Source: Desulfobacula sp.
GTDB lineage: Bacteria; Desulfobacterota; Desulfobacteria; Desulfobacterales; Desulfobacteraceae
Assembly (NCBI GenBank): GCA_023701135.1
Contig: JAMPXP010000021.1
Coordinates: forward strand, 33,429 to 97,428
Length of the DNA stretch: 64,000 bases
Direction: 5' to 3'
Within the stretch, counting starts at the first letter, position 1, and every line of letters begins with the position of its first letter. Of the stretch, positions 21,373 through 35,800 are shown piece by piece. The notes beneath the pieces are model-generated. The model was not told where the DNA came from. It saw only the letters and a list, made by a program, of their open reading frames with translations, and made no database searches. The translations under genes and the position numbers were made by a program.

Positions 21373-22776
21373 TTAAGGGTTCGCAATGATCAAAGACAGG
21401 GCCTGGGTCAGTTTTTTAACATAGGGGAGATGCAGGAATTCATTGGGACCATGGGCATTGGACTGAGGCCCCAGAACCCCTGTGACCAGAAATTTGGCTT
21501 CGGGGAATGTTTCACACAGAAGATTCATAAAGGGGATGGACCCGCCCTCACCGGTAAAACAGGGAGTGTTGCCGAAACAGAGTAAAGCGGCCTTGCTGAT
21601 CCGGGTTTCGAGCTCACTGCCCGTGCCCGGCATATCCCATCCCTTGGCCTGCTTTAAAACATTGAAAGTCACATGGGCGCCATAGGGCGGGTCCTTTTCC
21701 AGCAAGGTTTTGACCCGTTCCGCAGCCAGCCCTGTGTCCACTCCGGGTGGAGTCCGGATGGACAGCAAGAGTTTTGTGGATTCCCGGATGACGTTGGCCG
21801 CCTTGTCCAGGGGCGGGAATCCTTCTGCACCGGTGCAGGACAGGGTGGGTTTCCAGGTGCCTGCAATGATGAGGTCGACTGGGTCAAGGCCTGTGGGGAA
21901 AGCCCCTTCAACCAGGGGGAGGTTGGATATCAGGCTGTTACCCAGAAGCGCTGCCGTTGTTTGAATCTGGGCCAGTCTTTTTTCAGGGATGGGGCCATGA
22001 AGTTCTTCCACCAAAATTTCCCCAGTTTTTGAATCTTCAATCCGGTCCATCAACTGCCGTATAATCCTGAAGCTGGAGGCGACCATCCCGGAAGCGCCGG
22101 AATGGATGCTTTGGCTTAATATTTTTGCTTCCAGTTCACCCACAATAGTGCCCCGTAGAGATGTGGTGATCCACATCCGCTCATAGTCGCCGCAGCCCGA
22201 GTCAAGACATACCCCCAGAGTTGGTGTACCGATTTTGTCCCGGAGGGCTTCAAGATAATAATCCAAATCCCGGCTGCCGCTTTCTTCGCAGGTTTCAATG
22301 AGGATGACGCATCTGCCGTGGGGAATCTTATGGACTTGAAGGGCTTTGACGGCGAGGGCGGCAGCGAAGACGGCATATCCGTCATCAGCGCTACCCCGGC
22401 CGTAAAGCCGGTTGTTTTCAGTGACCGGCTGCCAGGGTCCCTTATTATCATCCCAGCCCTGGGCCGGGGGCTGTTTGTCCAGATGTCCGTATAAAAGGAG
22501 AATCTCTTTATTTGCAGGCCCGGTCGCCTCAATTTCAACCAGAAGAACAGGGGTTCGGTCTTCAGGGGATAGGATCTGAATCCCGGAGTTTTCAAGGGCC
22601 AGATTTTTCAGCCAGGTTTCCGCCAGCCTCAGGGTGTCCATTAACAACCCCGATGATTTCCAGTCCGGTGCAAAAAAGGGGGATACGGCAGGAATGGCAA
22701 TATAGTCCTTTAATGCCGGCATGGCGGATTTGTCCCAGGTTTTTTCGATGAATGCCTTTATTGAATTGATATTCAC
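21373..22776 (-). CDS. M20-family dipeptidase/metallopeptidase
   Basis: The 467-residue protein is a di-zinc M20 peptidase. Ligand motifs are visible: 'LLLYGHLDKQP' (His, Asp), 'GRGSADDGYAV' (bridging Asp), 'ETCEESGS' (catalytic and ligand Glu), and late 'SNAHGPNEF' (His). The lid domain sits between them with 'SQSIHSGASG'. Length fits dipeptidases of the PepV/carnosinase-like branch. No signal peptide, so it probably degrades peptides in the cytoplasm. The start is GTG at 22776 behind AAGGG. The zinc-ribbon gene follows by 12 bases. Confidence 0.88.
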   Translation of the reverse strand: MNINSIKAFIEKTWDKSAMPALKDYIAIPAVSPFFAPDWKSSGLLMDTLRLAETWLKNLALENSGIQILSPEDRTPVLLVEIEATGPANKEILLLYGHLDKQPPAQGWDDNKGPWQPVTENNRLYGRGSADDGYAVFAAALAVKALQVHKIPHGRCVILIETCEESGSRDLDYYLEALRDKIGTPTLGVCLDSGCGDYERMWITTSLRGTIVGELEAKILSQSIHSGASGMVASSFRIIRQLMDRIEDSKTGEILVEELHGPIPEKRLAQIQTTAALLGNSLISNLPLVEGAFPTGLDPVDLIIAGTWKPTLSCTGAEGFPPLDKAANVIRESTKLLLSIRTPPGVDTGLAAERVKTLLEKDPPYGAHVTFNVLKQAKGWDMPGTGSELETRISKAALLCFGNTPCFTGEGGSIPFMNLLCETFPEAKFLVTGVLGPQSNAHGPNEFLHLPYVKKLTQALSLIIANP

Positions 22777-22883
22777 AATAATACCCTTTATACATGATCA
22801 AATGGTGATATGAGACAGGGTTAAAACCTACAGGAAAATAAAGGCGCTTACAAGAAAATAGATGCTTGTGCCCTAAAAACAGG

Positions 22884-23534
22884 ATGGCTCAGATGGAATC
22901 CCAAATCACAATTGAGTGCCAAAAGATCAGGCTCGAGGGCAGGCTGAACCGGAATTCTTCACAAAAGGCGGTGATCGTCTGCCATCCCCATCCCCTCTAT
23001 GGCGGAGACATGGACAATCCCGTGGTAATGACCATTGCCCGGGCTTTTTTTGAAAAAGGATTCACAGCTTTGAGATTTAATTTCCGGGGAACGGGGAAGA
23101 GCACGGGGGCCTTTGACAATGGAACGGGCGAGCAGGAGGACATCCGGTCCGCCATGGATTATATGGCGGATCAGGGATTTTTGGATATCACCCTGGCCGG
23201 ATATTCCTTTGGTGCAAGAATGAATGCTGTGCTTGTTTCCCAGGGGTGCAGGATAGAAGACCATATCATGGTGTCTCCGCCTGCTGCGTTCATGAGTTTT
23301 GACGATATTGGAAAAATGCCGCACACGGGATTGATCGTAACCGGCAGGAATGATGACATAGCCCCGCCGGAACTGCTTGCGAGGCATATTAAAAGGTGGG
23401 GCATACATCCCCGGTTTGATATTCTGGACCATTGCGATCATTTTTATTCAGGCTGTCTTCAACAGCTCGAAACCCGGTTGACGGATTATCTTTCCGTAAA
23501 AGAAAGGGAAGGGCGGCCTGAAAATGGGGCATAA
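22884..23534 (+). CDS. Alpha/beta hydrolase (YsgA/dienelactone-like)
   Basis: The product of about 216 residues is a single alpha/beta-hydrolase domain. It has 'VCHPHPLYGGDMDNPV', typical of a subfamily with a His-Pro-His-Pro oxyanion stretch, the nucleophile elbow 'LAGYSFGAR', the acid in 'TGRNDDIAP' and the His in 'CDHFYSG'. Substrate unknown. Two in-frame ATGs compete: 22884 and 22893. AGGA at 22881-22884 is better spaced for the second. It diverges from the M20 gene, and its end overlaps the convergent acyltransferase gene by 49 bases. Confidence 0.85.
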   Translation: MAQMESQITIECQKIRLEGRLNRNSSQKAVIVCHPHPLYGGDMDNPVVMTIARAFFEKGFTALRFNFRGTGKSTGAFDNGTGEQEDIRSAMDYMADQGFLDITLAGYSFGARMNAVLVSQGCRIEDHIMVSPPAAFMSFDDIGKMPHTGLIVTGRNDDIAPPELLARHIKRWGIHPRFDILDHCDHFYSGCLQQLETRLTDYLSVKEREGRPENGA

Positions 23535-24497: not shown

Positions 24498-26132
24498 ATG
24501 CCGATCAAAGGGAAAACCCTGACTCTGGACGGATATACATTAACCATTGAAGAATTGATGAAGGCAGGGAATGATCTGTCCATCAAAGTCAAGGTGGCGG
24601 ATAAAAACTGGCCCAAGATCCGCGAGTGCAGAGCACTGGTTGATAAATGGGCCAATGAAGAACGCTGTATTTATGGTGTCAATACAAGCTGTGGCGGTCT
24701 GGTGGACTATCTTTTGCCCAGAGAAAGGGATAATGATTTTCAGAAAAATCTGGTCCGGGCCATCACCACCCAGGTGGGAAAGCCATTTGAGGATTCAATG
24801 GTTCGAAAATTCATGATTGCAAGAGCCAATTCTCTGTGTCGTGGTTTTTCCGGAATCAAGGAAAAGAACCTGAAAATTTACCTGGATATGATCAATAAGC
24901 ATGTCTTCCCGGTTGTCCCGAGAAAAGGCTCCCTTGGCACTAGCGGTGATTTAGGCCCCCTTGGCTGCATCGCCAGCGTTGCCTTTGGTGAATGGAAAGC
25001 CGTTTATAAAGGGAAGGTCATGCCGGGAAAAGAAGCAATGGCTGCTGCCGGTGTTGAGCTCATGCATTTGAATGCCAAGGAAGGTCTTTCCCTGATCAAT
25101 GGAACCTCCGGAATGGTGGGTCTTGCCTGTACGGTTATCTCGGAAGCGACGAATACATTGAAAAATTCCGATATTATCGCTGCCTTTGCCATTGAAACCC
25201 TCATGGGAAGATTTAATCCCTTTGATCCCATCGTACATGAACAAAAATACCACCCCGGCCAATATGCCACTGCATTGAATTTAACAAAGCTTCTTAAGGG
25301 AAGCGGATTGGCCATTGATGAGATAGAACTTTCTTTAAAACTTCAGTCAACCCTCAAGGAGCACAAAGGGGTGTCTGTGGCGCATATTCCGGTTGAAGAT
25401 GCTTACTCTATCCGGTGCACGCCTCAGTTTGTAGGACCTACAAAAGAAGCGGTAAACCATGCCCGTGAAGTTCTTTTAAGAGAACTCAATTCCAGCAATG
25501 ATAATCCGCTGATTTTTACCGAACTGGATACATTCTTTCACAATGGCCATTTCCATGGTCAGCCCATCTCTTTTGCCATGGATTGCCTGGGAATCGCCAT
25601 GGTTAACCTTGGTGTTGTCAGCGACAGGCGCATTGACCGGTTCATGGATGAGCATCACAGTACCGGGCTTCCCCCCTTCCTGTGCAAAGAAGACACCGGG
25701 GTCCGCATGGGGCTCATGGGCGGCCAGTTCATGACCACCTCCCTTGTGGCAGAGAACAGAACCCTTGCCGTACCTGCTTCAATTCAGTCCATCACCTCAA
25801 CGGCAGATTTTCAGGATATTGTCAGCTTTGGCCTGATTGCCGGAAGAAAAGCCCGCAAAATTGTTGAAAATACAAATCATATTCTTTCTTTTGAATTGCT
25901 TTGCGCAGCCCAGGCCGCAGACATCCGAGGGCCTGAAAAACTGAGCCCGGCCGGCAAGATCATGTACAAGGCTGTTCGTGAAACCCTTGAGTACATGTCT
26001 TATGACAAGGTGTATATTGATGACCTGGAAGAACTCAAAAAGAGAATTGAGTCCGGTGAGTTCGTGGAAAAGGTGGAAAAAGAAGTTGGGGAGCTTCTGA
26101 TCGTTCATGAAAAGAATAAAGACTTAAAATAA
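24498..26132 (+). CDS. MIO-family aromatic amino acid ammonia lyase / 2,3-aminomutase
   Basis: The 544-residue protein belongs to the HAL/PAL/TAL fold, whose MIO prosthetic group forms from three backbone residues. The triad here is Thr148-Ser149-Gly150 ('GSLGTSGDLGPLG'), not the usual Ala-Ser-Gly seen in the true hutH at 61659. The catalytic Tyr is Y59 ('YGVNTSCGG'). The selectivity pair that is Ser-His in HutH is Ala88-Ile89 here, so histidine is an unlikely substrate. 'LNSSNDNPLIF' and 'HNGHFHGQPIS' are intact. From memory, the TSG triad and 'DIRGPEKLS' tail resemble the AdmH/PaPAM phenylalanine aminomutase branch. It heads a cluster with an aminotransferase and a beta-keto acid cleavage enzyme, favouring an aminomutase that makes a beta-amino acid. 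Plain lyase activity remains possible. Confidence 0.85.
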   Translation: MPIKGKTLTLDGYTLTIEELMKAGNDLSIKVKVADKNWPKIRECRALVDKWANEERCIYGVNTSCGGLVDYLLPRERDNDFQKNLVRAITTQVGKPFEDSMVRKFMIARANSLCRGFSGIKEKNLKIYLDMINKHVFPVVPRKGSLGTSGDLGPLGCIASVAFGEWKAVYKGKVMPGKEAMAAAGVELMHLNAKEGLSLINGTSGMVGLACTVISEATNTLKNSDIIAAFAIETLMGRFNPFDPIVHEQKYHPGQYATALNLTKLLKGSGLAIDEIELSLKLQSTLKEHKGVSVAHIPVEDAYSIRCTPQFVGPTKEAVNHAREVLLRELNSSNDNPLIFTELDTFFHNGHFHGQPISFAMDCLGIAMVNLGVVSDRRIDRFMDEHHSTGLPPFLCKEDTGVRMGLMGGQFMTTSLVAENRTLAVPASIQSITSTADFQDIVSFGLIAGRKARKIVENTNHILSFELLCAAQAADIRGPEKLSPAGKIMYKAVRETLEYMSYDKVYIDDLEELKKRIESGEFVEKVEKEVGELLIVHEKNKDLK

Positions 26133-26151
26133 GACTTAAGGATAAGACACC

Positions 26152-27507
26152 ATGCCTAAAGAAAAATTAGGAATTGAAGAGCAGATTGAAAAGAAGATAG
26201 CAGAGGCTTACCGGGAAAAATTCCCGGTTTCAAAAAAGCATCATGAAGAGCTGATCAATTATATTCCCGGTGGTGCGACCCGAAGTTTATCTTATTTCAG
26301 ACCCTTTCCCATTCACATCGACCATGGTGAGGGAGCCTTTGTCTTTACGCCTGAAGGCCACAAGCTTCTGGATATCACCAATGCCTATGGCGCCATTGTC
26401 CATGGGCATGGTGACCCGGATGTGGTAAAAGCTGTTCAGGCCGGGATTGCAAAAGGGTCCCAGTATTCCAGCCCGACCCAGGGCCAGTACAAGCTTGCCA
26501 AGCTTTTGTGTGAAAGGGTTCCGGGGTTTGACCGGGTGAGGTTCCTGAACTCCGGGACCGAAGCCACCCTGTTTGCCATGAGAACGGCCAGGGCATTTAC
26601 CGGAAAAGACAAGATATTGAAAATGGTGGGCGGCTACCACGGCACCCATGACAGCGTGGCCGCCTCCACCAAGAAGAACGTCATCACGGCCGGTATTCCC
26701 AGGGGCATGACCCAGGATATGCTGGAAGTGAGCTTTAATGATTTTGATGCGTTGGAAAAAAAGGTCAGGGAAAATGCCTCTGAACTTGCCGCCGTTATTA
26801 TGGAGCCTTTTTTGGGGGCCGGCGGGGTGGTGCTTCCGAAAGAAGGATATCTGGAACATGTACGCAAAGTCACCCAGGACCATAAGGTTCTCCTGATTTT
26901 TGATGAAATTTTTTCTTACCGGGTGGATACGGGCGGATGCCAGAAGCTCTGGAACGTGACCCCGGATCTGACAACGGTGGGCAAGGTGGTGGGTGGAGGG
27001 CTTCCCATCGGTGTCTTCGGCGGTAAAAAAGAAATCATGAACATCTATTGCCATGAAAATACCGACAGGCCGCTGTATCATTCCGGGACCTTTAACGGCT
27101 ATGAAACCGTGATGCAGGCCGGTTACGCAGCCCTGTCCAAGTATGATGAAAATGCCGTGGCCTATATCAACGGCCTTGGGGCAAGGCTCCAGGAAGGGCT
27201 CTTGAAAAGTATTAGGACCAATGGATTGAGGATACAGTCCAATCGGATCGGGTCCCTTCTGAACCTTCATTTTTATAATGAGCCCATCACCACGGCAGAA
27301 CAGGTTCTGAAGTCGGAAGAAAAACTCCATGCCCTGATGCATCTGTCCCTTTTAAACAAGGGGGTTTTTAGCATCCCCAGGGGACTGTTCATCCTGTCGA
27401 CGGCCATGACCAACAAGGAAATTGATTTTCTCTTGGATAAAATAGATGAAACCTTAAAAGAATTGTTGCCATTAATTAAAGAAAATTATAACCATTTACT
27501 CTTGTAA
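26152..27507 (+). CDS. Class III PLP aminotransferase, candidate beta-amino acid transaminase
   Basis: The 451-residue fold-type I enzyme has the PLP lysine at K278 ('LTTVGKVVGGGLPIG'), the ring-stacking/phosphate block 'NSGTEATLFAMRTAR', 'GGYHGTHDS' and the 'LIFDEIFS' aspartate. Overall it resembles glutamate-1-semialdehyde aminomutase, which is also the nearest relative of the characterised beta-phenylalanine transaminase. The N-terminal 'PGGATRSLSYFRPFP' places an Arg (R44) where that enzyme binds the substrate carboxylate (from memory). No heme genes are nearby, so a HemL role is unlikely. Context suggests it converts a beta-amino acid to a beta-keto acid. It starts 19 bases after the MIO gene. 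Confidence 0.85.
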   Translation: MPKEKLGIEEQIEKKIAEAYREKFPVSKKHHEELINYIPGGATRSLSYFRPFPIHIDHGEGAFVFTPEGHKLLDITNAYGAIVHGHGDPDVVKAVQAGIAKGSQYSSPTQGQYKLAKLLCERVPGFDRVRFLNSGTEATLFAMRTARAFTGKDKILKMVGGYHGTHDSVAASTKKNVITAGIPRGMTQDMLEVSFNDFDALEKKVRENASELAAVIMEPFLGAGGVVLPKEGYLEHVRKVTQDHKVLLIFDEIFSYRVDTGGCQKLWNVTPDLTTVGKVVGGGLPIGVFGGKKEIMNIYCHENTDRPLYHSGTFNGYETVMQAGYAALSKYDENAVAYINGLGARLQEGLLKSIRTNGLRIQSNRIGSLLNLHFYNEPITTAEQVLKSEEKLHALMHLSLLNKGVFSIPRGLFILSTAMTNKEIDFLLDKIDETLKELLPLIKENYNHLLL

Positions 27508-27544
27508 TGAGGTTTGATTAATGTATTTCAAAAAGAGAAAATAA

Positions 27545-28027
27545 ATGGTTCTAGACAAAATTGACAAACAGATTTTAAATACGCTTCAGGAGAATGGCAA
27601 AACAACCAATTCCAAACTGTCCAAAATTGTAGGGATTTCAGCCCCTGCAACCCTTGAAAGGGTTAAAAGGCTTGAGCTTGCAGGGGTGATTTCCCACTTT
27701 ACGGCGGTACTGGACCCGGAAAAGATCGGGTTTTCCATCATGGCCATGGTCAGTATCAGTTTAAGTTTGAGCAGCCTGTCATCGGTGGCCGCCATCAAAC
27801 AACGGTTTGTTGCCCTGGATGAGGTGGTGGAATGCTACCAGATTGCAGGGGCCAATGATTTTGTGCTCAAGGTCATTGCAAAGGATATCAAAGCCTATGG
27901 GGAGTTCATGAACAAAAAGCTCACCCAGATAGAAGGGATTCAAATCATTAAATCCTCCTTTGTGATTGACAATGTCAAGGAAAAGAAAATGTTCATCCTT
28001 GACTTGGATGAGGAATACGGAGTCTAG
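27545..28027 (+). CDS. Lrp/AsnC-family transcriptional regulator
   Basis: The 160-residue protein has an N-terminal winged helix-turn-helix ('LDKIDKQILNTLQENGKTTNSKLSKIV...PATLERVKRLELAGVI') and a C-terminal RAM ligand-binding domain ('VVECYQIAGANDFVLKVIAKD'). Family members sense amino acids and bind DNA as dimers to octamers. It lies inside the cluster between the aminotransferase and the cleavage enzyme, so it probably controls these genes in response to the amino acid or a product. The direct repeats at 24322-24360 are the likely target. Confidence 0.92.
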   Translation: MVLDKIDKQILNTLQENGKTTNSKLSKIVGISAPATLERVKRLELAGVISHFTAVLDPEKIGFSIMAMVSISLSLSSLSSVAAIKQRFVALDEVVECYQIAGANDFVLKVIAKDIKAYGEFMNKKLTQIEGIQIIKSSFVIDNVKEKKMFILDLDEEYGV

Positions 28028-28061
28028 AAAATATTAATTTTTTCAACAGGAGAAGCAACCA

Positions 28062-28997
28062 ATGGATAATAAAATAATTATAACAGCCGCCATTACAGGG
28101 TCTGTTCATATCCCCACCATGAGTGATTACCTCCCCATAACCCCAGATCAGATTGTGGAGGATGCGGTCAAGGCCCATGAGGCCGGCGCCGCCATTGCCC
28201 ATATCCACGTGAGAAATCCTGAAAACGGTCTACCTGTATCGGACCCGGCGCTTTTCATGGAGGTCTGCAGCAAGATCAAGAAGAGATGCAATATGATCCT
28301 TCTTCCCACCACCGGCGGCGGCATGAACCAGACCACGGAAGAGAAACTCATCCCCATCAAAAAGCTTCGCCCCGAAATGTGTTCCTTTGACCCTGCGCCC
28401 TTTAATTTCGGTATCTTTCAGATTGCCGGCCGGTTCAAGGAATATAAATACGCCTGGGAAAAGGACTATCTTGAACTCTGCAAGAATGTGACCTTCAGGC
28501 CGACGTTTAACGACGACCTCATCTATGGAAAGGCCTTTCTTGAAATTGACACCAAGCCGGAACTGGAAATCTATGAGCTGGGCCACATTTCCTATGTGAA
28601 ATGGCTGTTGGAAGAAAATATGCTGAAAGCACCGGTTCATCTCCAGTTTGTATTCGGCCCCATGGTGGGATGGATGGTGCCGTCGGTCAAACACCTGGTA
28701 TTGATCTACGACGAGGCAAAGGAAGTCCTGGGGGAAGGCAATTTTACCTGGTCCGTGGCTGCCGGCGGCCGGTTCCAGATCCCCATCACCAGTACGGCCA
28801 TGGCCATGGGCGCGCAGAATATCAGGGTCGGGCTTGAGGATTCCGTATACGCCGGCAAGGGTATCATGGCAAAGGCCAGCGCCGACCAGGTCAACATGGT
28901 CAAACGCATCGCCAGGGAAATGAGCCTTGAACCGGCGACATCCGACGAAGCAAGACAGATTCTCAAGCTTAAAGGAATCGATAAGGTAGCGTTCTGA
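28062..28997 (+). CDS. Beta-keto acid cleavage enzyme (BKACE, DUF849)
   Basis: The 311-residue TIM-barrel protein belongs to the family of 3-keto-5-aminohexanoate cleavage enzyme (Kce), which condenses a beta-keto acid with acetyl-CoA to release acetoacetate and a new acyl-CoA. The zinc ligands are visible as His47 and His49 ('IAHIHVRN') and Glu in 'IRVGLEDS'. The N-terminal segment 'ITGSVHIPTMSDYLPITPDQI' marks a subgroup that differs from Kce, in which this loop carries an acidic residue contacting the substrate amino group (from memory). No lysine fermentation genes are present, so the substrate is a different beta-keto acid, probably the product of the neighbouring aminotransferase. AGGAG lies just upstream of the ATG. 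Confidence 0.9.
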   Translation: MDNKIIITAAITGSVHIPTMSDYLPITPDQIVEDAVKAHEAGAAIAHIHVRNPENGLPVSDPALFMEVCSKIKKRCNMILLPTTGGGMNQTTEEKLIPIKKLRPEMCSFDPAPFNFGIFQIAGRFKEYKYAWEKDYLELCKNVTFRPTFNDDLIYGKAFLEIDTKPELEIYELGHISYVKWLLEENMLKAPVHLQFVFGPMVGWMVPSVKHLVLIYDEAKEVLGEGNFTWSVAAGGRFQIPITSTAMAMGAQNIRVGLEDSVYAGKGIMAKASADQVNMVKRIAREMSLEPATSDEARQILKLKGIDKVAF

Positions 28998-29082
28998 TTT
29001 TTTGAAAACCCTGTTTACAATGTGGGCGTTTTTTAAGAAACGGACGCGGTTTGACAGAATAATGAAAAAAAGGAGGGCATCG

Positions 29083-30663
29083 TTGAATTATTCAGGTTAC
29101 GCTTCAATTCATGCTCGGCATATTCCTGACAAGGTCTGCCTGATCGAAAGAACCCCGGCAACGGGGGCAAGGCGATCCTTTACCTGGAGGGAATTTAATG
29201 ACGAGATCAACAGAACGGCGAATTATCTATCAAAGGAACTGGGGGTCAGGCATGGGGATTTTGTCATGCACCTTCAGAAAGATTCTCTGGAATGGCTGAT
29301 CACCTATTTTGCCATCATCCGCCTGGGTGCAGTCGTTGTTCCATTGAATTTTCGTTTTGAGACCTCTGATGTCCTCTATGCCGCCGAAGTTTGCAAGCCG
29401 GATGTTTTTATTCTCGGATCTGAATTTTTAGGGGTTGTTCAGCCGGGACAAAAAGATCTTGGGACCATTAAAAAATATATCTGTATCGGTAAAGATGTTC
29501 CAAAAGACATGATTGATTTCAAAACGGTCCAGGCATATCCGGATACATCAGATGCCCTGGTGGACGTTGACAGGGATCATGACCTTGCCATGATGTTCAC
29601 TTCGGGAACAACCGGAAAACCAAAGCCCGTCCTCCATACCCATTATTCCATCAATAATACGGCCATTGGCAATGGAATGACCTATTTTGTCCAGAAGGAT
29701 GATAATTATTTATTCTTTTTACCTTTATATCACAGCGGCACCATGTTTTTATGGGCTCCTTTCTATGCCACCGGTGCGACTGGGACCATCATCAGGGATT
29801 TCCGCGACCCCAAATGGATTATTGAAGCCGTTGCTGAAGAAAAATGTACGGACGTGCTCTTTGTGGTTCCCATCGGCATTGCTGTTTTAAATGCCATTGC
29901 CAAGGGGGATCTGAAACTGGAGAACTATGATCTTTCTTCGTGGAAATATATGGAGATCGGAGCCCAGCCCGTACCCTTTGATATCATGAAGCTCCTGGTG
30001 GAAAAATTGCCCTGCGCCGTATCCAATATCTATGGTATCACCGAGGGCGGCGGGGGCGGTTTGTTTAATCTGTATCCCGAGGATGTTCTCTCAAGACCCG
30101 GTTCCATCGGCAAACCCACCTTCGGGGTTGAGGCCAAAATTGTCGGGCCCACAGGGGAAGAGCTTCCCGATGGTCACGTGGGAGAGCTCATCTTCCGGAC
30201 GCCCCGGATGATGCGGGAGTATTATTCAAACCCAGAAAAAACAAAAGAAACCATAAAAAAGGGTTGGCTTTACACCGGAGATTTACTAAAGAAGGACAAA
30301 GACGGGTATTTTTATATCGTTGACCGGATGAAGGATATGGTCACCAGCGGGGGTGAGAATATTTTCCCGGTTGAGATTGAAGATGCATTGATGGATCATC
30401 CCGACATTGATGATGTGGCCTGCATCGGATATCCGGATGACCGGTTGGTGGAAATTGTCCTTGCCGTTGTCCAGACAAAAGAAGGAAAAGAGTTGACGGA
30501 AGAAGAGGTGATTGAGTTTGCAAAATCCAAACTTTCTCTTTACAAGGTCCCGCGCAAGGTCATCTTTGACCGGGTCCCGCGGAACCCCACAGGAAAGCTG
30601 ATGAAACCGCAACTCAGGGAAAAATACACGGGCCGGAGGGAGGCATTTAAAAAATTAGATTAG
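29083..30663 (+). CDS. AMP-forming acyl-CoA ligase
   Basis: The 526-residue protein is an ANL-superfamily adenylating enzyme that makes an acyl-CoA from a carboxylic acid, ATP and CoA. Motifs are 'MFTSGTTGKPKPVLHTH' (P-loop), 'YGITEGGGG', 'YTGDLLKKDKDGYFYIVDRMKD' and the catalytic lysine in 'NPTGKLMK'. I place the start at TTG 29083 because AGGAGG (29071-29076) is six bases upstream; the frame is open to 29002 without a ribosome site. The substrate is not readable from sequence; acetoacetate released by the cleavage enzyme, or an imported or pathway carboxylic acid, are the options that fit the cluster. Confidence 0.88.
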   Translation: MNYSGYASIHARHIPDKVCLIERTPATGARRSFTWREFNDEINRTANYLSKELGVRHGDFVMHLQKDSLEWLITYFAIIRLGAVVVPLNFRFETSDVLYAAEVCKPDVFILGSEFLGVVQPGQKDLGTIKKYICIGKDVPKDMIDFKTVQAYPDTSDALVDVDRDHDLAMMFTSGTTGKPKPVLHTHYSINNTAIGNGMTYFVQKDDNYLFFLPLYHSGTMFLWAPFYATGATGTIIRDFRDPKWIIEAVAEEKCTDVLFVVPIGIAVLNAIAKGDLKLENYDLSSWKYMEIGAQPVPFDIMKLLVEKLPCAVSNIYGITEGGGGGLFNLYPEDVLSRPGSIGKPTFGVEAKIVGPTGEELPDGHVGELIFRTPRMMREYYSNPEKTKETIKKGWLYTGDLLKKDKDGYFYIVDRMKDMVTSGGENIFPVEIEDALMDHPDIDDVACIGYPDDRLVEIVLAVVQTKEGKELTEEEVIEFAKSKLSLYKVPRKVIFDRVPRNPTGKLMKPQLREKYTGRREAFKKLD

Positions 30664-30773
30664 ACACAAAACTGCGCTGTTTTGCTTGACTTCATCCTGA
30701 ACTGAAAAAACGCTGCCGTTGAGCGCGCCGAGTGAAGTGATAATTAGTTTGATTCCAAAAAAAAGTTGAAACC

Positions 30774-30803
30774 GGTGTAGGACTTTACATCAAGACTTAC
30801 ACC
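30774..30803. repeat. Imperfect inverted repeat before the TRAP transporter genes
   Basis: Left arm GGTGTAGGACTT (30774-30785) and right arm AAGACTTACACC (30792-30803) pair at 10 of 12 positions around a six-base centre. The 179-base gap 30664-30842 that contains it has no gene. The element sits ~40 bases before dctP and has no T-run, so it looks more like an operator than a terminator. It is unlike the direct repeats before the MIO gene. Confidence 0.5.
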
Positions 30804-30842
30804 ACAATTTATAAACTTAACGTAAAGGAAAGGAACTAAGTT

Positions 30843-31922
30843 ATGAAGCTGAAAAGATTTTTAGTGGTATTGCTTGTTTTGGTGGTCGGATCATTTATGT
30901 TTATTGCCCCTGCATCTTCTGAAGACAAGCCCGACCCCCTTGCCAAATGGGCGCCTCAATTCGACCCCAAGGGTGCAAAATACAAATGCGTTGTTTCAAA
31001 TGTATCCACCCCGGCCCTGGTCGGAACCTATGCAGGTTTTGAAATCCGTGACGAACTCTGGAAACGGACCAACGGCCAGATCTATCTGGATTATAAACCC
31101 TTATCCATTCTGGGCGGCGAAGTCGAAGTCCTCAACATGGTCCAGATGGGGGCTGTTCAAGGCATCAGCGTCAGCTCCGTAGCCTCCACCAACCTCGGAC
31201 CCCGGTTCGGCGTTGTCAACCTGCCCTTTCTGGTGGACTCATTTGCAAAACTGGATAAATTCACCGGCAACAAGGTTCTTTTCGACCATTTTCTCATGGC
31301 AGCCGACCACCAGGGCATGACGGCCCTTGATATCACCGGTTACGGTAATTATGGCTGGGCCACCAATAATCCTGTCAGAACCATTGACGATGCCAAGAAA
31401 GTAAAGTTCAGAATCGCAGAAGCAGCGGTTAACCAGCTTTCCTATAAAAACTGGGGATTCAACCCGGTTTCCATGCCCTGGACCGATGTCCAGGTGGCTC
31501 TGAAACAAGGCGTTATCGATGGTCTGGATCATACACCGGCCGTTTGTAACCTGACAAAGAAATTTGAAGTGGCCAAGTATTTTACCCAGCTCAATTATGC
31601 CCAGGGCCTTTTTATCTGGCTGTTTAACAAAGCCTGGCTGCAAAGTCTTCCCCAGGATTTGAGAGACATTTTTATTAAAACCGTAAACGATGTCTGTGTT
31701 GAGAACAGAAAAAGAACCGCCACCTGGGAAGAAGAACAGATCGCGGCTTCCAAGGCTTCCGGTGTGGAATTCATCAAACTATCCGATGCCGATATGAAGA
31801 CCTTGAAAGATTTGAGCAAAGGCACTTACGACACCTATGCCAAGGAAATCAACCAGATTAACCCCGGCGACACATACAAACCGGCCAATTACCTCCAGGA
31901 AGTTATGGATTTCCTGAAATAA
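30843..31922 (+). CDS. TRAP transporter substrate-binding protein (DctP family)
   Basis: The 359-residue periplasmic protein has a clear signal peptide ('KRFLVVLLVLVVGSFMFIAPASSED'). The mature part follows the DctP pattern: 'YAGFEIRDELWKRTNGQIYLDYKP', 'EVEVLNMVQMGAVQG', then 'VKFRIAEAAVNQLSYKNWGFNPVSMPWTDVQVALKQGVIDG', which includes the region with the conserved Arg that binds the ligand carboxylate. It captures a carboxylate-bearing substrate and delivers it to the DctQ/DctM pair encoded next. AAGGAAAGGAAC precedes the ATG. Given the upstream enzymes, the ligand could be an amino acid or aromatic acid (inference). Confidence 0.92.
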   Translation: MKLKRFLVVLLVLVVGSFMFIAPASSEDKPDPLAKWAPQFDPKGAKYKCVVSNVSTPALVGTYAGFEIRDELWKRTNGQIYLDYKPLSILGGEVEVLNMVQMGAVQGISVSSVASTNLGPRFGVVNLPFLVDSFAKLDKFTGNKVLFDHFLMAADHQGMTALDITGYGNYGWATNNPVRTIDDAKKVKFRIAEAAVNQLSYKNWGFNPVSMPWTDVQVALKQGVIDGLDHTPAVCNLTKKFEVAKYFTQLNYAQGLFIWLFNKAWLQSLPQDLRDIFIKTVNDVCVENRKRTATWEEEQIAASKASGVEFIKLSDADMKTLKDLSKGTYDTYAKEINQINPGDTYKPANYLQEVMDFLK

Positions 31923-31967
31923 CCTGTAGCTCAAACATGAATAATTGAAAAGAATAGGACCTGGTTT

Positions 31968-32462
31968 ATGATTGGAAATATCTCAAAAAAAATCGATACA
32001 TTCTTGACCCACATCGAAGAATGGAGCCTTTTTATTATTGTGATGGTGTCCCTGATCTCGCTGTTTGCCAATGTGGTGCTGCGGTATGGATTCGGCTATA
32101 CCCTTGCCTGGAGCGAGGAGCTGGGGCGTATTGCCATGGTGTATACCACCATGCTGGGAACCAGCCTCTCAGTGAAAAAGGGGGCTGTGATAAGAATCGA
32201 CGCACTGGTTCAGATTGTACCCAAACTTAAACCAGGTCTGACTTTTTATTCCAATATCCTGATGATGTTTTTTTCCGGGATGATGATCTATTACGGATAT
32301 ACCATGACCCTGCTTCAGTATACCACCCATCAGAAAACCATCATCATGCAGATCCCCCTTGTGATTGTCTACGCCATCATGCCTTTGATGGGCATAATGA
32401 CCCTGATCCGGACAATACAGGTATTGGCCGATGACATTAAAAATCTCAGGAAGAAGGACTAA
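31968..32462 (+). CDS. TRAP transporter small membrane subunit (DctQ family)
   Basis: The 164-residue protein has four hydrophobic spans, the DctQ layout, with the family motif 'NVVLRYGFGYTLAWSEELGRIAMVYTTMLGTS' bridging spans one and two ('RY..g..l.WseEl'). It pairs with the large DctM subunit, whose gene starts 12 bases after its stop, to couple uptake to the Na+ or proton gradient. It lies 45 bases after dctP. Confidence 0.92.
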   Translation: MIGNISKKIDTFLTHIEEWSLFIIVMVSLISLFANVVLRYGFGYTLAWSEELGRIAMVYTTMLGTSLSVKKGAVIRIDALVQIVPKLKPGLTFYSNILMMFFSGMMIYYGYTMTLLQYTTHQKTIIMQIPLVIVYAIMPLMGIMTLIRTIQVLADDIKNLRKKD

Positions 32463-32474
32463 GGGGGAAGCAAA

Positions 32475-33770
32475 ATGACATCAAACGACGCTATTATCAT
32501 GGTGATCCTCCTGGGTTGCCTTATTTCTTATGTTCCGGTTTTTTTAAGCCTGTTTATCGCTTCCACCGTGGGGTTTCTGTTTTTCCTGAACATGCCTCTC
32601 GGCATGATGACCCAGACCCTGTTCCGGAGTGTGGATAATTTCGGGCTTGTTGTGGTTTTGTTTTTTGTTCTCTGCGGGAATATCATGACCAAGGGGAAAA
32701 TGGTGGAAAAACTCATCAGTTTTGCCAATTCCATGGTGAGCTGGCTGCCGGGCGGGCTCGGCATGGCCGGCGTCATTGGCTGCGGGCTTTTCGGCGCCAT
32801 TTCCGGCTCCACCGTGGCCACGGTGGTGGCCCTGGGCGGGTTCATGATCCCGGCCCTCCTGAGAAACGGCTATGATGAAGATTATACCATCGGGCTCATG
32901 ACCACCTCCCCGAACCTGGGGATCATCATCCCGCCGAGCATCAGCATGATTTTTTATTCCATGATCAGCAACGTGTCCCTGGAAGGGCTGTTCCTGACCG
33001 GGTTCATCCCGGGTATCATTATTATCCTCTGCGTCTGTATTTACACCTATGTGCTGTACAGGGACCGCAAAGATATCAAAAGGTTGCCCAGACCCAGGTT
33101 TAAAGATCTGATCGGCATCTTCAAGGACGGCTTCTGGGCCATCATGCTGATTGTGATCATATTTGGCGGTATTTTCACCGGAGCCTTTACGGCCAATGAG
33201 GCTGCGGTTGTGGCCAGTGTCTATGCTTTTTTTGTGGAGCTGGTTATTTACAAATCCATGAATTTTAAGGATGTCAAGGATGTCTGCGTCAGCTCGGCCC
33301 TGACCACGGCCACCCTGCTGCTCATCGTGGCCTGCGCCACGGTCTTCGGCCGGTATTTGACCTTTGAAAACATCCCCAGCCGGGTGGCGGAACTGGTCAT
33401 CAGCAGCATTCATTCGCCCTGGGTTTTTCTTTTGGCCATGAACGTCCTGCTCCTGATTGTCGGCATGTTTATGGATATCATCTCAGCCACCCTGATCCTG
33501 GGGCCGGTATTCCTGCCCCTGCTCAGCGCTTTTAACGTGGACCCCATGCATTTCGGACTTCTCATGACCGTGAACCTGGCCATCGGGTACTGCACCCCGC
33601 CCATGGGGGTCAGTCTTTTTGTTGTCGGGTCCATGACCAAAAAGGATATCATCTATGTTACAAAGGCGTCCATGCCGACCATGATCATCCAGATTGTCGT
33701 ATTGTTCTTTTTGACCTATATGCCGGATCTGGTTCTATTCATGCCGAGACTTTTCGGCTATCATCAATAG
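32475..33770 (+). CDS. TRAP transporter large permease subunit (DctM family)
   Basis: The 431-residue polytopic protein has ~12 hydrophobic spans and DctM signatures: 'GCGLFGAISGSTVATVVALGGFMIPALLRNGYD', 'SPNLGIIIPPSISMIFYSMISNVSLEGLFLTGFIPG', 'GAFTANEAAVVASVYAF' and 'LGPVFLPLLSAFNVDPMHFGLLMTVNLAIGYCTPPMG'. GGGGGA precedes the ATG. It is the last gene of the cluster and is followed by a strong bidirectional terminator. Confidence 0.94.
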   Translation: MTSNDAIIMVILLGCLISYVPVFLSLFIASTVGFLFFLNMPLGMMTQTLFRSVDNFGLVVVLFFVLCGNIMTKGKMVEKLISFANSMVSWLPGGLGMAGVIGCGLFGAISGSTVATVVALGGFMIPALLRNGYDEDYTIGLMTTSPNLGIIIPPSISMIFYSMISNVSLEGLFLTGFIPGIIIILCVCIYTYVLYRDRKDIKRLPRPRFKDLIGIFKDGFWAIMLIVIIFGGIFTGAFTANEAAVVASVYAFFVELVIYKSMNFKDVKDVCVSSALTTATLLLIVACATVFGRYLTFENIPSRVAELVISSIHSPWVFLLAMNVLLLIVGMFMDIISATLILGPVFLPLLSAFNVDPMHFGLLMTVNLAIGYCTPPMGVSLFVVGSMTKKDIIYVTKASMPTMIIQIVVLFFLTYMPDLVLFMPRLFGYHQ

Positions 33771-33801
33771 ACTCTGAAGATTTCCGGAAGGATCTGATAA
33801 A

Positions 33802-33847
33802 AAAAACCGGGATTACAAAGAAGATCTCTTTCTGAATCCCGGTTTTT
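33802..33847. terminator. Bidirectional terminator between dctM and the receiver gene
   Basis: A perfect 13-bp stem (aaaaaccgggatt at 33802-33814 with aatcccggttttt at 33835-33847) encloses a 20-base loop that itself is nearly palindromic around AGATCT. A-runs on the left and T-runs on the right give U-tracts for transcripts from both sides, as expected for convergent genes ending at 33770 (+) and 33864 (-). Confidence 0.85.
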
Positions 33848-33863
33848 GTTTTATATAACTGTC

Positions 33864-34421
33864 TTAAATACCTTTGCTGGTGATATTTTTGTCGTGCAGC
33901 ACCCTTTCCTGGATGCCCCTGGAAACCTGCCATGTTTTTTCAAATTCATTCCAGAACTCTTTGTTTTCATTTTTCCAGCCTTTTCCAAACCGCTGGTTAA
34001 AATGGTTTCCCAGCTTTTCAAACAAAAGTTTCCATGCGGGTTTTCCTTTGCTTTGTTCTCCCATGAGTTCATCGATCAACGAATCCAGTTCGCTTAAATG
34101 TTCTTTGGAAAGATAGGAAACCGCCCCTTTTTTGATGGACTGCATTAAAGAATCCGGGTTCATGGAATTGGCCGTCAGCATGATGGCAGGAATACTTCGC
34201 TCCACACATTCTTCCAGCAGTTGAATACCGTTGACGCCCATGATATCTAAAATGGCCAGATCATATTGGGTTTCCATGATTTTTTCCGATGCGGATTCAT
34301 AGTCCTGAGCAAAATCCACATCTGCTTCATCAAGGATTTCCTGAATGGTTTCAATGACATCCCATTCGTCATCAACGGCCAGTATATGTTTTCCCTTAAG
34401 AAAAGAAACAGGTTGTGTCAT
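33864..34421 (-). CDS. Stand-alone response regulator receiver protein
   Basis: The 185-residue protein has a receiver domain (residues ~10-125): acidic pair in 'ILAVDDEWD', phosphoacceptor Asp59 ('LAILDIMGVNG'), 'IMLTAN' and a 'SKEHLSEL' end in place of the usual K-P. The C-terminal ~60 residues are helical, basic and Trp/Phe-rich ('FGKGWKNENKEFWNEFEKTW') and match no output domain I know. There is no histidine kinase beside it. It is isolated between the TRAP operon and the methyltransferase. The 218-base gap upstream (34422-34639) contains no gene. Confidence 0.85.
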   Translation of the reverse strand: MTQPVSFLKGKHILAVDDEWDVIETIQEILDEADVDFAQDYESASEKIMETQYDLAILDIMGVNGIQLLEECVERSIPAIMLTANSMNPDSLMQSIKKGAVSYLSKEHLSELDSLIDELMGEQSKGKPAWKLLFEKLGNHFNQRFGKGWKNENKEFWNEFEKTWQVSRGIQERVLHDKNITSKGI

Positions 34422-34639: not shown

Positions 34640-35800
34640 TTAGAATAATTCCAACTGGATATCTGTCCGGTGGATATCTTTCCTGACCCTGGTGTTTTTT
34701 TTCGAAACAGGTTCCGTCAGAAGGAAGCGGTCTCCTCCCTGGCAAAAACCCGGTTGCGGGTCATCGGAATAAAGGGCCTGTAATGATTTTTTTGTCGGTT
34801 GCGTGACCTCTTTCAATTCATTGATGATCATTTCTTTTTCCTGCCGGGTAATGACCGGGAATCCATAGGGCAGATTCGTGTGCTTGACGGGTTTTCCGGA
34901 AGCCGTTCTTTCTGCGATAAAGGAAAGATGGGATTTCAGCCTGTTTTCGGTGGTTTCCCGGGCAAGCTGGATGATATTGTTTTGAATCCCTGTGATGGAA
35001 TCCAGAAATCCTTTTTCGATTTCACACCCGATAGAGTTTCTCGCTGCAGTCATGGCCGCGGCAAGTGTGGTCCCTGTGCCGAGAAAGGGATCCAGGACAA
35101 TATCGTTTTTAACGGAATACATATTGATGAGCCTGTAGGCCAGCTCAAAGGGAAAAGCGGCGCTTCTCTTTCTTAATTCCTTATCATGAAGATCCTGGCG
35201 GCTGCCTTTGATATCAAACCAGATATCGGAGAAATAAATATTTCTTTCTTCCCAGAAAATGGCGCTCTGCCTTCGGTTTTGTTTTTCAATGTCCGATGAA
35301 AATACCCGCTTACCACTTTTCCTGAGAATCAATATATATTCGTGCTCCAGGGTGACATAGGCACCGGCCGGCAGCATGCCGGAGCCCATGAATTTATTGG
35401 GTGCATTGGTTTGTTTTCGCCAGATAATCATGGGCAGGGCCGTAAACCCGATTTGAAGTGCATGCCGGAGAATCCGGCTATGATTGGAATATATGGCAAA
35501 ATCCGACTGAAGGGTTCTTACAGCATCTCCGATATTGATACAGGCAAACCCCCCATTTTTCAGAACCCGGAAGGCTTCATCCCATACCGGATCAAGGGTT
35601 TGGTGCATGAGTTCAAAGGCTTTTGGCCCCTGCTTTTTTTGAAGGGCCAGGGCCAGGGCTTTGTTCCGGCCGGCAAAAAGACCATCCCACATTTCAATCA
35701 TGGGATAGGGCGGGGACGTGACAATGAGGTCAATGCTGTGGGATGGGATTTTATCCATCCGTGCAGCGTCCTGAATCAGGATGGTATGGGTGGTTTCCAT
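34640..35800 (-). CDS. Solitary beta-class DNA methyltransferase (N4-C or N6-A)
   Basis: The 386-residue protein has the catalytic motif 'DLIVTSPPYPM' (Thr28-Tyr32) near the N-terminus and the SAM-binding 'LDPFLGTGTTLAAAM' about two-thirds along, the order of beta-class enzymes. 'SPPY' is more often N4-cytosine, but N6-adenine cannot be excluded. The C-terminal ~100 residues lack clear motifs. No restriction endonuclease, specificity subunit or Vsr gene is adjacent, so it may be an orphan regulatory methylase. The gene has its own start behind a 191-base divergent gap with an inverted repeat. Confidence 0.85.
   Translation of the reverse strand: METTHTILIQDAARMDKIPSHSIDLIVTSPPYPMIEMWDGLFAGRNKALALALQKKQGPKAFELMHQTLDPVWDEAFRVLKNGGFACINIGDAVRTLQSDFAIYSNHSRILRHALQIGFTALPMIIWRKQTNAPNKFMGSGMLPAGAYVTLEHEYILILRKSGKRVFSSDIEKQNRRQSAIFWEERNIYFSDIWFDIKGSRQDLHDKELRKRSAAFPFELAYRLINMYSVKNDIVLDPFLGTGTTLAAAMTAARNSIGCEIEKGFLDSITGIQNNIIQLARETTENRLKSHLSFIAERTASGKPVKHTNLPYGFPVITRQEKEMIINELKEVTQPTKKSLQALYSDDPQPGFCQGGDRFLLTEPVSKKNTRVRKDIHRTDIQLELF

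What the first reader, a model, noticed from the sequence alone, without database searches (positions are those of the whole stretch)
24498..33770. Candidate anaerobic pathway: alpha-amino acid to beta-amino acid to beta-keto acid to acyl-CoA
Side by side on one strand are a MIO enzyme with aminomutase-like features, a class III aminotransferase resembling beta-phenylalanine transaminase, a beta-keto acid cleavage enzyme, an acyl-CoA ligase, an Lrp/AsnC regulator and a TRAP importer. Each chemistry is known singly (PaPAM-type 2,3-aminomutase; VpAT-type beta-transaminase; Kce/BKACE cleavage with acetyl-CoA). In order they make a complete route: L-amino acid to beta-amino acid to 3-oxo acid, then + acetyl-CoA to acyl-CoA + acetoacetate. 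For phenylalanine this would give benzoyl-CoA without going through phenylpyruvate, and for tyrosine 4-hydroxybenzoyl-CoA. I know of no described catabolic pathway built this way. The substrate identity is inference.
Basis: partly seen in the sequence, partly recalled or inferred. Interest (0 to 1): 0.93.

Follow-up and report, generated by a model that had tools for sequence, protein, structure and literature searches.

The report
Phenylalanine-to-benzoyl-CoA route via beta-phenylalanine
Sulfate-reducing bacteria of the Desulfobacula group share a gene cluster that is predicted to break down phenylalanine without oxygen by moving its amino group, turning it into a beta-keto acid and splitting that into benzoyl-CoA, which would be a likely new way to feed an amino acid into a known aromatic-degrading pathway.

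Summary
[quoted passage not shown] MIO, aminotransferase and BKACE form a conserved trio: the aminotransferase follows the MIO gene in 25 of 25 testable loci, BKACE in 20 of 20. The MIO active site matches the beta-phenylalanine-forming aminomutase AdmH, though it scores below that family's curated cut-off. The aminotransferase has the carboxylate arginines of beta-phenylalanine transaminases. In 86 family genomes the trio travels with benzoyl-CoA ring-cleavage genes (45 of 50 carriers, 3 of 36 non-carriers). The D. toluolica Tol2 ortholog of the MIO enzyme is named "Pal: predicted phenylalanine ammonia..."; the cluster's TRAP is almost certainly the one published as supposedly phenylalanine/phenylacetate-importing. 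So L-Phe to beta-Phe to benzoylacetate to benzoyl-CoA plus acetoacetate is the best reading; no enzyme step is shown. Corrections: phenylalanine, not tyrosine, is indicated; ligase and TRAP form a separable module that occurs without the trio in D. multivorans, there linked to phenylacetate; the published alternative is a plain ammonia-lyase making cinnamate.

The parts
24498..26132 (+). MIO enzyme (Thr148-Ser149-Gly150 triad), AdmH/PaPAM-like; predicted L-Phe to (S)-beta-Phe aminomutase
   Evidence: PF00221 525 bits; best NCBIfam TIGR04475 663.5 bits, cut-off 800; best PDB 3unv AdmH 470 bits; pocket residues
26152..27507 (+). class III aminotransferase with Arg44, Tyr79 and Arg410 of beta-amino acid transaminases; predicted beta-Phe to benzoylacetate
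   Evidence: PF00202 184 bits; best PDB StoTA 6k8h; last 155 residues best match VpAT 4ao9; N-terminal alignments
27545..28027 (+). Lrp/AsnC regulator, predicted amino-acid-sensing regulator of the cluster
   Evidence: PF01037, PF13412; 21 of 22 loci
28062..28997 (+). BKACE, predicted benzoylacetate + acetyl-CoA to benzoyl-CoA + acetoacetate
   Evidence: PF05853 284 bits; only BKACE match in the genome; TIM-barrel-type model, best PDB 3lot, then 3e02, 3e49 and BKACE15; catalytic residues invariant in 34 of 34 aligned sequences
29002..30663 (+). acyl-CoA ligase; accessory, ortholog sits beside a phenylacetate-induced TRAP in D. multivorans
   Evidence: PF00501/PF13193; 74% to the D. multivorans ligase beside DctP4; 18 of 19 loci
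30843..31922 (+). DctP, TRAP solute-binding protein
   Evidence: PF03480; 78% to D. multivorans DctP4
31968..32462 (+). DctQ, TRAP small permease
   Evidence: PF04290; 64% to D. multivorans DctQ4
32475..33770 (+). DctM, TRAP large permease
   Evidence: PF06808; 78% to D. multivorans DctM4

Best explanation
The conserved trio MIO enzyme, aminotransferase and BKACE likely forms a catabolic route predicted to convert L-phenylalanine to (S)-beta-phenylalanine, then to benzoylacetate, then with acetyl-CoA to benzoyl-CoA and acetoacetate. Inferred step 1: the MIO enzyme would shift the amino group from C2 to C3 through a bound cinnamate, leaking some cinnamate. Inferred step 2: the class III aminotransferase would pass the beta-amino group to a 2-oxo acid; free benzoylacetate decarboxylates easily, so it would be used at once. 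Inferred step 3: BKACE would hand the benzoyl group to CoA while the two other side-chain carbons leave as part of acetoacetate, which a CoA-transferase or ligase and a thiolase would return to acetyl-CoA. Benzoyl-CoA would enter the benzoyl-CoA pathway, whose BamA and Had genes are present in this genome. The Lrp protein would sense the amino acid; the TRAP and ligase are a joined uptake/activation module, likely for phenylacetate or another aryl acid.
For: Gene order and conservation. MIO: TIGR04475 is the best model by 180 bits over histidine ammonia-lyase, while the genome's other MIO (61677-63188) is HutH over cut-off; the ten AdmH pocket positions I checked are the same in the window enzyme except one Val to Ile (my mapping of the alignment; which positions line the pocket is recalled; counts). 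Aminotransferase: Arg44 lies at VpAT Arg41, which binds the substrate carboxylate, and Tyr79 at Tyr76, which binds the ring (PMC9850050 passages); its last 155 residues match VpAT best of all PDB sequences and keep the PRG arginine that the two GSAM alignments shown lack. The hands fit: (S)-selective transamination of beta-Phe is in PMC6150868 (passages), the (S) product of AdmH is recalled. BKACE: His47, His49, Glu169, Arg255, Glu259 in 34 of 34 sequences, the window's own included; Glu169 and Arg255 match BKACE15 Glu171 and Arg254 (passages; my mapping). Destination: of 86 family genomes 50 carry the MIO ortholog; BamA or Had is in 45 of 50 against 3 of 36; BamA occurs in exactly the 9 of 14 genera that have MIO; within genus g4 only 2 of 19 genomes have MIO and only those two have BamA and Had. 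The aminotransferase ortholog is in 45 of 50 carriers and 0 of 36 others. In G001 bamA and had lie about 4 and 7 kb from the MIO gene on the same strand. Substrate: the Tol2 ortholog is identical to the protein named Pal; the Tol2 cluster TRAP is 74.7-90.2% identical to D. [quoted passage not shown]
Against: No activity is shown for any step. The MIO enzyme scores 663.5 where TIGR04475 asks 800, and sequence alone does not separate aminomutase from lyase here; public sources name its orthologs variously as aromatic amino acid lyase, histidine ammonia-lyase, Pal or phenylalanine aminomutase (120 of 786 listed). The Tol2 work (abstract recalled; paper not held) reports cinnamate and phenylacetate from labelled phenylalanine and a lyase route. 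VpAT Glu75 is Ala78 here and Val43 is Leu46. In the passages I saw, no BKACE is reported to take benzoylacetate, and BKACE relatives of 68-71% identity outside the order (3 of 395 phylum genomes besides the window's) sit in other contexts where I looked, one beside a mutase-like protein and a cyclase. Five of 50 carriers show neither BamA nor Had (G039, G044, G045, G050, G076; 77-92% complete), and three non-carriers have one or both (G033, G068, G074). The fate of acetoacetate is open: no AtoD-type subunit over the TIGR02429 cut-off in this genome. Co-occurrence is within one family, so genomes are not independent.
Confidence: 0.6

Rival explanations
1. The MIO enzyme is a plain phenylalanine ammonia-lyase. 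Cinnamate leaves the enzyme and is degraded through CoA esters or to phenylacetate, as proposed for D. toluolica; aminotransferase and BKACE serve another substrate.
For: The Tol2 ortholog is named Pal; the Tol2 abstract (recalled) reports cinnamate and phenylacetate; the TRAP beside it, and probably the ligase, are tied to phenylacetate in D. multivorans; aminomutase curated cut-off not reached.
Against: It leaves unexplained why a beta-transaminase-like enzyme and a BKACE follow the MIO gene in 25 of 25 and 20 of 20 loci and why, in 86 family genomes, the aminotransferase ortholog is found only in MIO carriers. Phenylalanine ammonia-lyase model TIGR01226 scores 257 against a cut-off of 519. 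Leaked cinnamate is expected from an aminomutase too (recalled).
Confidence: 0.2
2. beta-Phe is first activated by the acyl-CoA ligase and the HemL-like aminotransferase works on the CoA ester (as Kat does in lysine fermentation), giving benzoylacetyl-CoA for a thiolase; BKACE acts elsewhere.
For: Kat is a HemL-like acyl-CoA beta-transaminase working in a Kce pathway (PMC3149608 passages); a ligase lies in 18 of 19 clusters; in G001 a thiolase-family gene lies about 8 kb from the MIO gene, beside had.
Against: The aminotransferase keeps the arginines that bind a free carboxylate; the ligase is missing beside the trio in L030 while BKACE stays; none of the eight window genes is a thiolase; the ligase ortholog occurs without the trio in D. 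multivorans.
Confidence: 0.07
3. Same three-step logic but for another amino acid, such as tyrosine or a non-aromatic one, so that the product is another acyl-CoA.
For: StoTA, the nearest solved relative of the aminotransferase, is broad and also takes beta-leucine; BKACE specificity is not read from sequence here; BKACE best NCBIfam is the 3,5-dioxohexanoate enzyme, below cut-off (334.6 against 430).
Against: AdmH-like pocket with Asn84-Leu85 instead of the His of tyrosine enzymes (recalled position); co-occurrence with BamA/Had; Tol2 Pal and TRAP tied to phenylalanine.
Confidence: 0.1

Closest known systems
Lysine fermentation (KamA, KamDE, Kdd, Kce)
   Same: alpha-amino acid to beta-amino acid, oxidised to a beta-keto acid, cleaved by a BKACE with acetyl-CoA to acyl-CoA plus acetoacetate (PMC3149608 passages)
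   Different: Here a MIO enzyme stands in place of the lysine aminomutases, a transaminase in place of the dehydrogenase, and the product would be benzoyl-CoA
AdmH/PaPAM phenylalanine aminomutase of andrimid biosynthesis
   Same: same family, MIO residue and nearly the same pocket
   Different: would serve catabolism, not antibiotic synthesis; TSG triad (ASG in AdmH recalled); below the curated cut-off
Variovorax/Mesorhizobium/Sphaerobacter beta-amino acid transaminases (VpAT, MesAT, StoTA)
   Same: class III, HemL-like, with Arg41-, Tyr76- and PRG-type residues
   Different: Leu46 for Val43 and Ala78 for Glu75; sits in a pathway cluster of an anaerobe
D. toluolica Tol2 Pal route
   Same: orthologous gene cluster in the same genus; phenylalanine as substrate
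   Different: published route is lyase to cinnamate to phenylacetate (abstract recalled, paper not held); whether it discusses the adjacent aminotransferase and BKACE I could not see
Acetophenone/ethylbenzene pathway of Aromatoleum
   Same: benzoylacetate as precursor of benzoyl-CoA (PMC5214803 passages)
   Different: benzoylacetate comes from acetophenone carboxylation, is activated by a CoA ligase and cut by thiolysis
Phloroglucinol degradation in Clostridium scatologenes
   Same: a BKACE-family enzyme in an anaerobic aromatic-degrading gene cluster (PMC10470551 passages)
   Different: its beta-keto acid is triacetate from ring opening, not an aryl beta-keto acid from an amino acid
Anaerobic phenylalanine degradation via phenylpyruvate (Thauera, Aromatoleum)
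   Same: ends at benzoyl-CoA
   Different: goes through phenylacetyl-CoA and phenylglyoxylate and loses the two outer side-chain carbons as CO2 (PMC5109826 section 9; PMC9765128 passages; carbon count recalled)

Membership tests
Phenylalanine aminomutase, AdmH type (TIGR04475) | curated score cut-off 800 bits | tested here: not met
   663.5 bits, best of all NCBIfam models for this protein; so called AdmH-like, not a member
Phenylalanine aminomutase, AdmH type (TIGR04475) | MIO-forming X-Ser-Gly and catalytic Tyr, Arg, Asn | tested here: met
   Tyr59, Thr148-Ser149-Gly150, Asn201, Arg306 unchanged in all 40-42 ortholog segments (some loci fetched twice); a 72% relative, P0127, reads Ser-Ser-Gly
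Phenylalanine aminomutase, AdmH type (TIGR04475) | forms beta-phenylalanine | not testable with these tools
   needs an enzyme assay
Phenylalanine ammonia-lyase (TIGR01226) | curated score cut-off 519 | tested here: not met
   257 bits
Aromatic beta-amino acid transaminase (VpAT motif) | Arg41 for the substrate carboxylate | tested here: met
   Arg44, 39 of 39 segments
Aromatic beta-amino acid transaminase (VpAT motif) | Val43 and Tyr76 for the ring | tested here: inconclusive
   Tyr79 kept in 39 of 39; Val43 is Leu46 in 39 of 39
Aromatic beta-amino acid transaminase (VpAT motif) | Glu75 supporting Arg41 | tested here: not met
   Ala78 in 38 of 39, Ser in 1; StoTA, with Asn there, is still active on beta-Phe (passages); so called VpAT-like, not filed under the motif
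BKACE (PF05853) | Pfam gathering score | tested here: met
   284.4 against 24.8 bits
BKACE (PF05853) | Zn-site His-X-His and Glu, catalytic Glu and Arg | tested here: met
   His47, His49, Glu169, Arg255, Glu259 in 34 of 34; roles of BKACE15 Glu171/Arg254 from PMC11961710 passages, zinc ligands recalled
BKACE (PF05853) | acts on benzoylacetate (needed for this route, not for the family) | not testable with these tools
   no assay; no report in the passages seen
Lysine fermentation cluster | lysine aminomutases and 3,5-diaminohexanoate dehydrogenase beside kce | tested here: not met
   none among the eight cluster genes

The most novel reading that the evidence does not exclude
The published phenylalanine ammonia-lyase of Desulfobacula is an aminomutase, and Desulfobacula-type sulfate reducers degrade phenylalanine through a beta-phenylalanine shunt: amino-group shift, beta-transamination and acetyl-CoA-dependent cleavage give benzoyl-CoA with two side-chain carbons saved in acetoacetate and no phenylpyruvate, phenylacetate or free cinnamate needed.
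Probability: 0.5. Interest if true: 0.85.

Novelty: new variant of a known kind. Interest (0 to 1): 0.72.

Why it matters
It would be a further anaerobic route from an abundant protein amino acid into the benzoyl-CoA pathway, built on the logic of lysine fermentation but from unrelated first enzymes. It would give a role in degradation to an enzyme type known from antibiotic and taxol synthesis, give BKACE an aryl beta-keto acid as substrate, and re-explain a published result in a cultured marine sulfate reducer that can be tested directly.

Tried and rejected
Tyrosine as substrate: set lower because position 85 is Leu. The CoA-transferase pair beside an Ior-like pair in Tol2 (L062) as the acetoacetate step: in the three stretches of the window's genome that I compared, the best matches are only 43% and 33% identical, so not claimed. 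BKACE relatives of about 70% identity as proof of an aromatic substrate: the neighbourhoods looked at differ, so they do not support it. BKACE model: mean pLDDT 84, but no coordinate file appeared in the Python box, so no pocket was measured. Rfam hit STnc430 at 33763-33856 (33.9 bits, gathering 47): taken as chance. Promoter and terminator scan: 24 and 18 sites against means of 15.4 and 14.6 in shuffles, not used. Wide search for the MIO ortholog: 1 of 395 phylum genomes at E 1e-120, the window's own; no other genome of the family is seen in the part of that list that is shown. Paper searches (listings, then passages of some papers) found no paper describing this route in the open-licence library; subscription papers are mostly absent from it. 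Two listed papers with several of the terms were opened and do not describe it in the passages shown; most other listed papers were not opened.

Dropped before counts: loci without enough DNA downstream (n given per gene; DctM had 0 testable loci); matches under 50% identity in the synteny count; MIO matches of 42% identity or less (HutH and others) were not counted as orthologs; ortholog fragments were counted as present. The genome sets were typed by hand; the aminotransferase set. In L010 the ligase ortholog lies upstream of MIO; that locus was too short to count.
Full report
What is there. The window comes from a Desulfobacula-like genome (G000, 4.8 Mb, 98.9% complete). Eight genes on one strand run from 24498 to 33770 with small gaps: MIO enzyme, class III aminotransferase, Lrp/AsnC regulator, BKACE, acyl-CoA ligase, and DctP, DctQ, DctM.

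Conservation. A scan of genome contigs gave 30 loci, labelled Desulfobacula, Desulfotignum, other Desulfobacteraceae or Desulfobacterales, or unresolved Deltaproteobacteria/Proteobacteria. Counting only loci with enough DNA downstream, the aminotransferase follows MIO in 25 of 25, Lrp in 21 of 22, BKACE in 20 of 20, the ligase in 18 of 19, and this TRAP's DctP and DctQ in 13 of 17. L030 (the same contig as G001 C7, by name and length) keeps MIO, aminotransferase and BKACE, with a permease-like gene between MIO and aminotransferase, no Lrp and no ligase beside them. In L010 the ligase ortholog lies upstream of MIO. The core is therefore the trio.

Where the product goes. In 86 genomes of the family, 50 hold the MIO ortholog (72% identity or more, fragments included; the next matches are at 42% or less), 49 the BKACE ortholog (83% or more) and 45 the aminotransferase ortholog, all of them MIO carriers. 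BamA (TIGR03200) is in 38 of 50 carriers and 2 of 36 others; BamA or Had (TIGR03201) in 45 of 50 and 3 of 36. One of the three exceptions, G074, has a BKACE ortholog on a 3.3 kb contig. BamA occurs in exactly the 9 of 14 genera with MIO; Had in these and one more. In genus g4, 2 of 19 genomes have MIO and only these two have BamA and Had. In G001 bamA and had lie on the same strand about 4 and 7 kb from the MIO gene. The window's genome has one BamA over the cut-off and one Had, 0.9 kb apart on contig C42. This fits a product that enters the benzoyl-CoA pathway. The genomes are related, so the Fisher values overstate the strength; the genus pattern is the fairer test.

Substrate. The chromosome G055 has 5,197,905 bases, the length of D. 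toluolica Tol2 in Table 1 of PMC5109826. It carries the whole cluster (L047). Its MIO protein is identical to P0066, which UniRef names "Pal: predicted phenylalanine ammonia" (listing cut there). PMC5109826 (sections 3 and 9 read, other passages seen) calls DctM9Q9P9 of Tol2 a supposedly phenylalanine/phenylacetate importer and gives 74-90% identity to D. multivorans DctM4Q4P4. The Tol2 cluster's TRAP is 79.7 (DctP), 74.7 (DctQ) and 90.2% (DctM) identical to the TRAP at 2.78 Mb of D. multivorans (G121, 4,455,399 bases), so the cluster's TRAP is almost certainly DctM9Q9P9. The Tol2 paper itself is not held; from memory, its abstract reports non-oxidative deamination of phenylalanine to cinnamate and then phenylacetate, with both metabolites seen.

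Enzymes. MIO: best curated model TIGR04475, 663.5 bits against a cut-off of 800, next histidine ammonia-lyase 483; the genome's second MIO is HutH over its cut-off. Mapping the alignment to AdmH gives Tyr59, Asn84, Leu85, Ile89 (Val in AdmH), Leu152, Leu197, Arg306, Leu406, Phe411, Phe438; all but position 89 equal AdmH and are unchanged in 40-42 ortholog segments, position 89 being Ile in 38 and Val in 3 (which positions line the pocket is recalled). Aminotransferase: nearest solved relatives are StoTA, glutamate-1-semialdehyde aminomutases and the beta-transaminases. A 113-residue N-terminal piece ranks StoTA, VpAT, MesAT and 6iz9 first and the last 155 residues rank VpAT first. Arg44 and Tyr79 match VpAT Arg41 and Tyr76; Leu46 and Ala78 differ from Val43 and Glu75 (motif from PMC9850050, passages). 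StoTA itself has Asn at the Glu75 place and acts on beta-Phe (PMC10589169, passages). BKACE: the AlphaFold model, mean pLDDT 84, matches 3lot, 3e02, 3e49 and BKACE15; residues matching BKACE15 Glu171 and Arg254 (PMC11961710, passages) are invariant in 34 of 34 sequences, and so is a Phe-Asp-Pro-Ala-Pro-Phe-Asn stretch where the four solved relatives shown read Asn-Met-Gly-Ser or -Thr.

Ligase and TRAP. In D. multivorans the ligase ortholog (74%) and the TRAP stand together with no MIO match at E 1e-120 and no BKACE match at E 1e-85 in that genome. The paper says that this TRAP, and the ligase FadD4 in the same region, form on phenylacetate and phenylpyruvate; that the ortholog is FadD4 is inferred from gene order, two ligase genes being neighbours there. 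The ligase is thus more likely for phenylacetate or another aryl acid than a step of the trio.

Reading. The trio makes best chemical sense as amino shift, beta-transamination and acetyl-CoA-dependent cleavage: a free cinnamate would not be a substrate for the next two enzymes. The logic is that of lysine fermentation (PMC3149608, passages), and a BKACE-family enzyme already serves anaerobic aromatic degradation in phloroglucinol breakdown (PMC10470551, passages). Benzoylacetate is a known precursor of benzoyl-CoA in acetophenone degradation (PMC5214803, passages). No step is shown here; the main rival is the published lyase reading, and both predict some cinnamate. In the open-licence library I found no paper that describes the route (searches; two listed papers opened do not describe it in the passages shown).

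Noticed in passing
window 61677-63188 +: A second MIO gene, histidine ammonia-lyase HutH over its cut-off (694 against 524 bits).
   Followed up: yes
window 33864-34421 -: Receiver-only response regulator beside the TRAP; its 58% homolog in D. multivorans is separated from the same TRAP by two histidine-kinase-type genes.
   Followed up: partly
window 34640-35800 -: N6/N4 DNA methylase with a weak CcrM-like match (57 bits, cut-off 830).
   Followed up: no
L045 8975-11368 -: Methyltransferase with a weak MAD2 defence match (182 bits, cut-off 720) directly beside the BKACE gene in G001.
   Followed up: no
window 21373-22776 - and 22866-23534 +: M20 peptidase and alpha/beta hydrolase-like gene upstream of the MIO gene; hydrolase homologs recur upstream in many of the related loci.
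   Followed up: no
L062 7951-12430 -: In Tol2 a CoA-transferase pair stands beside an Ior-like oxidoreductase pair about 75 kb from the cluster; likely the published atoAD-iorA2B2, which could serve acetoacetate.
   Followed up: partly
L093 216-12804 +: A 70% BKACE relative in another family lies among a cyclase, a TRAP, a methylmalonyl-CoA-mutase-like pair, two HGD-D proteins and a PaaK-like ligase, an unexplained pathway.
   Followed up: partly
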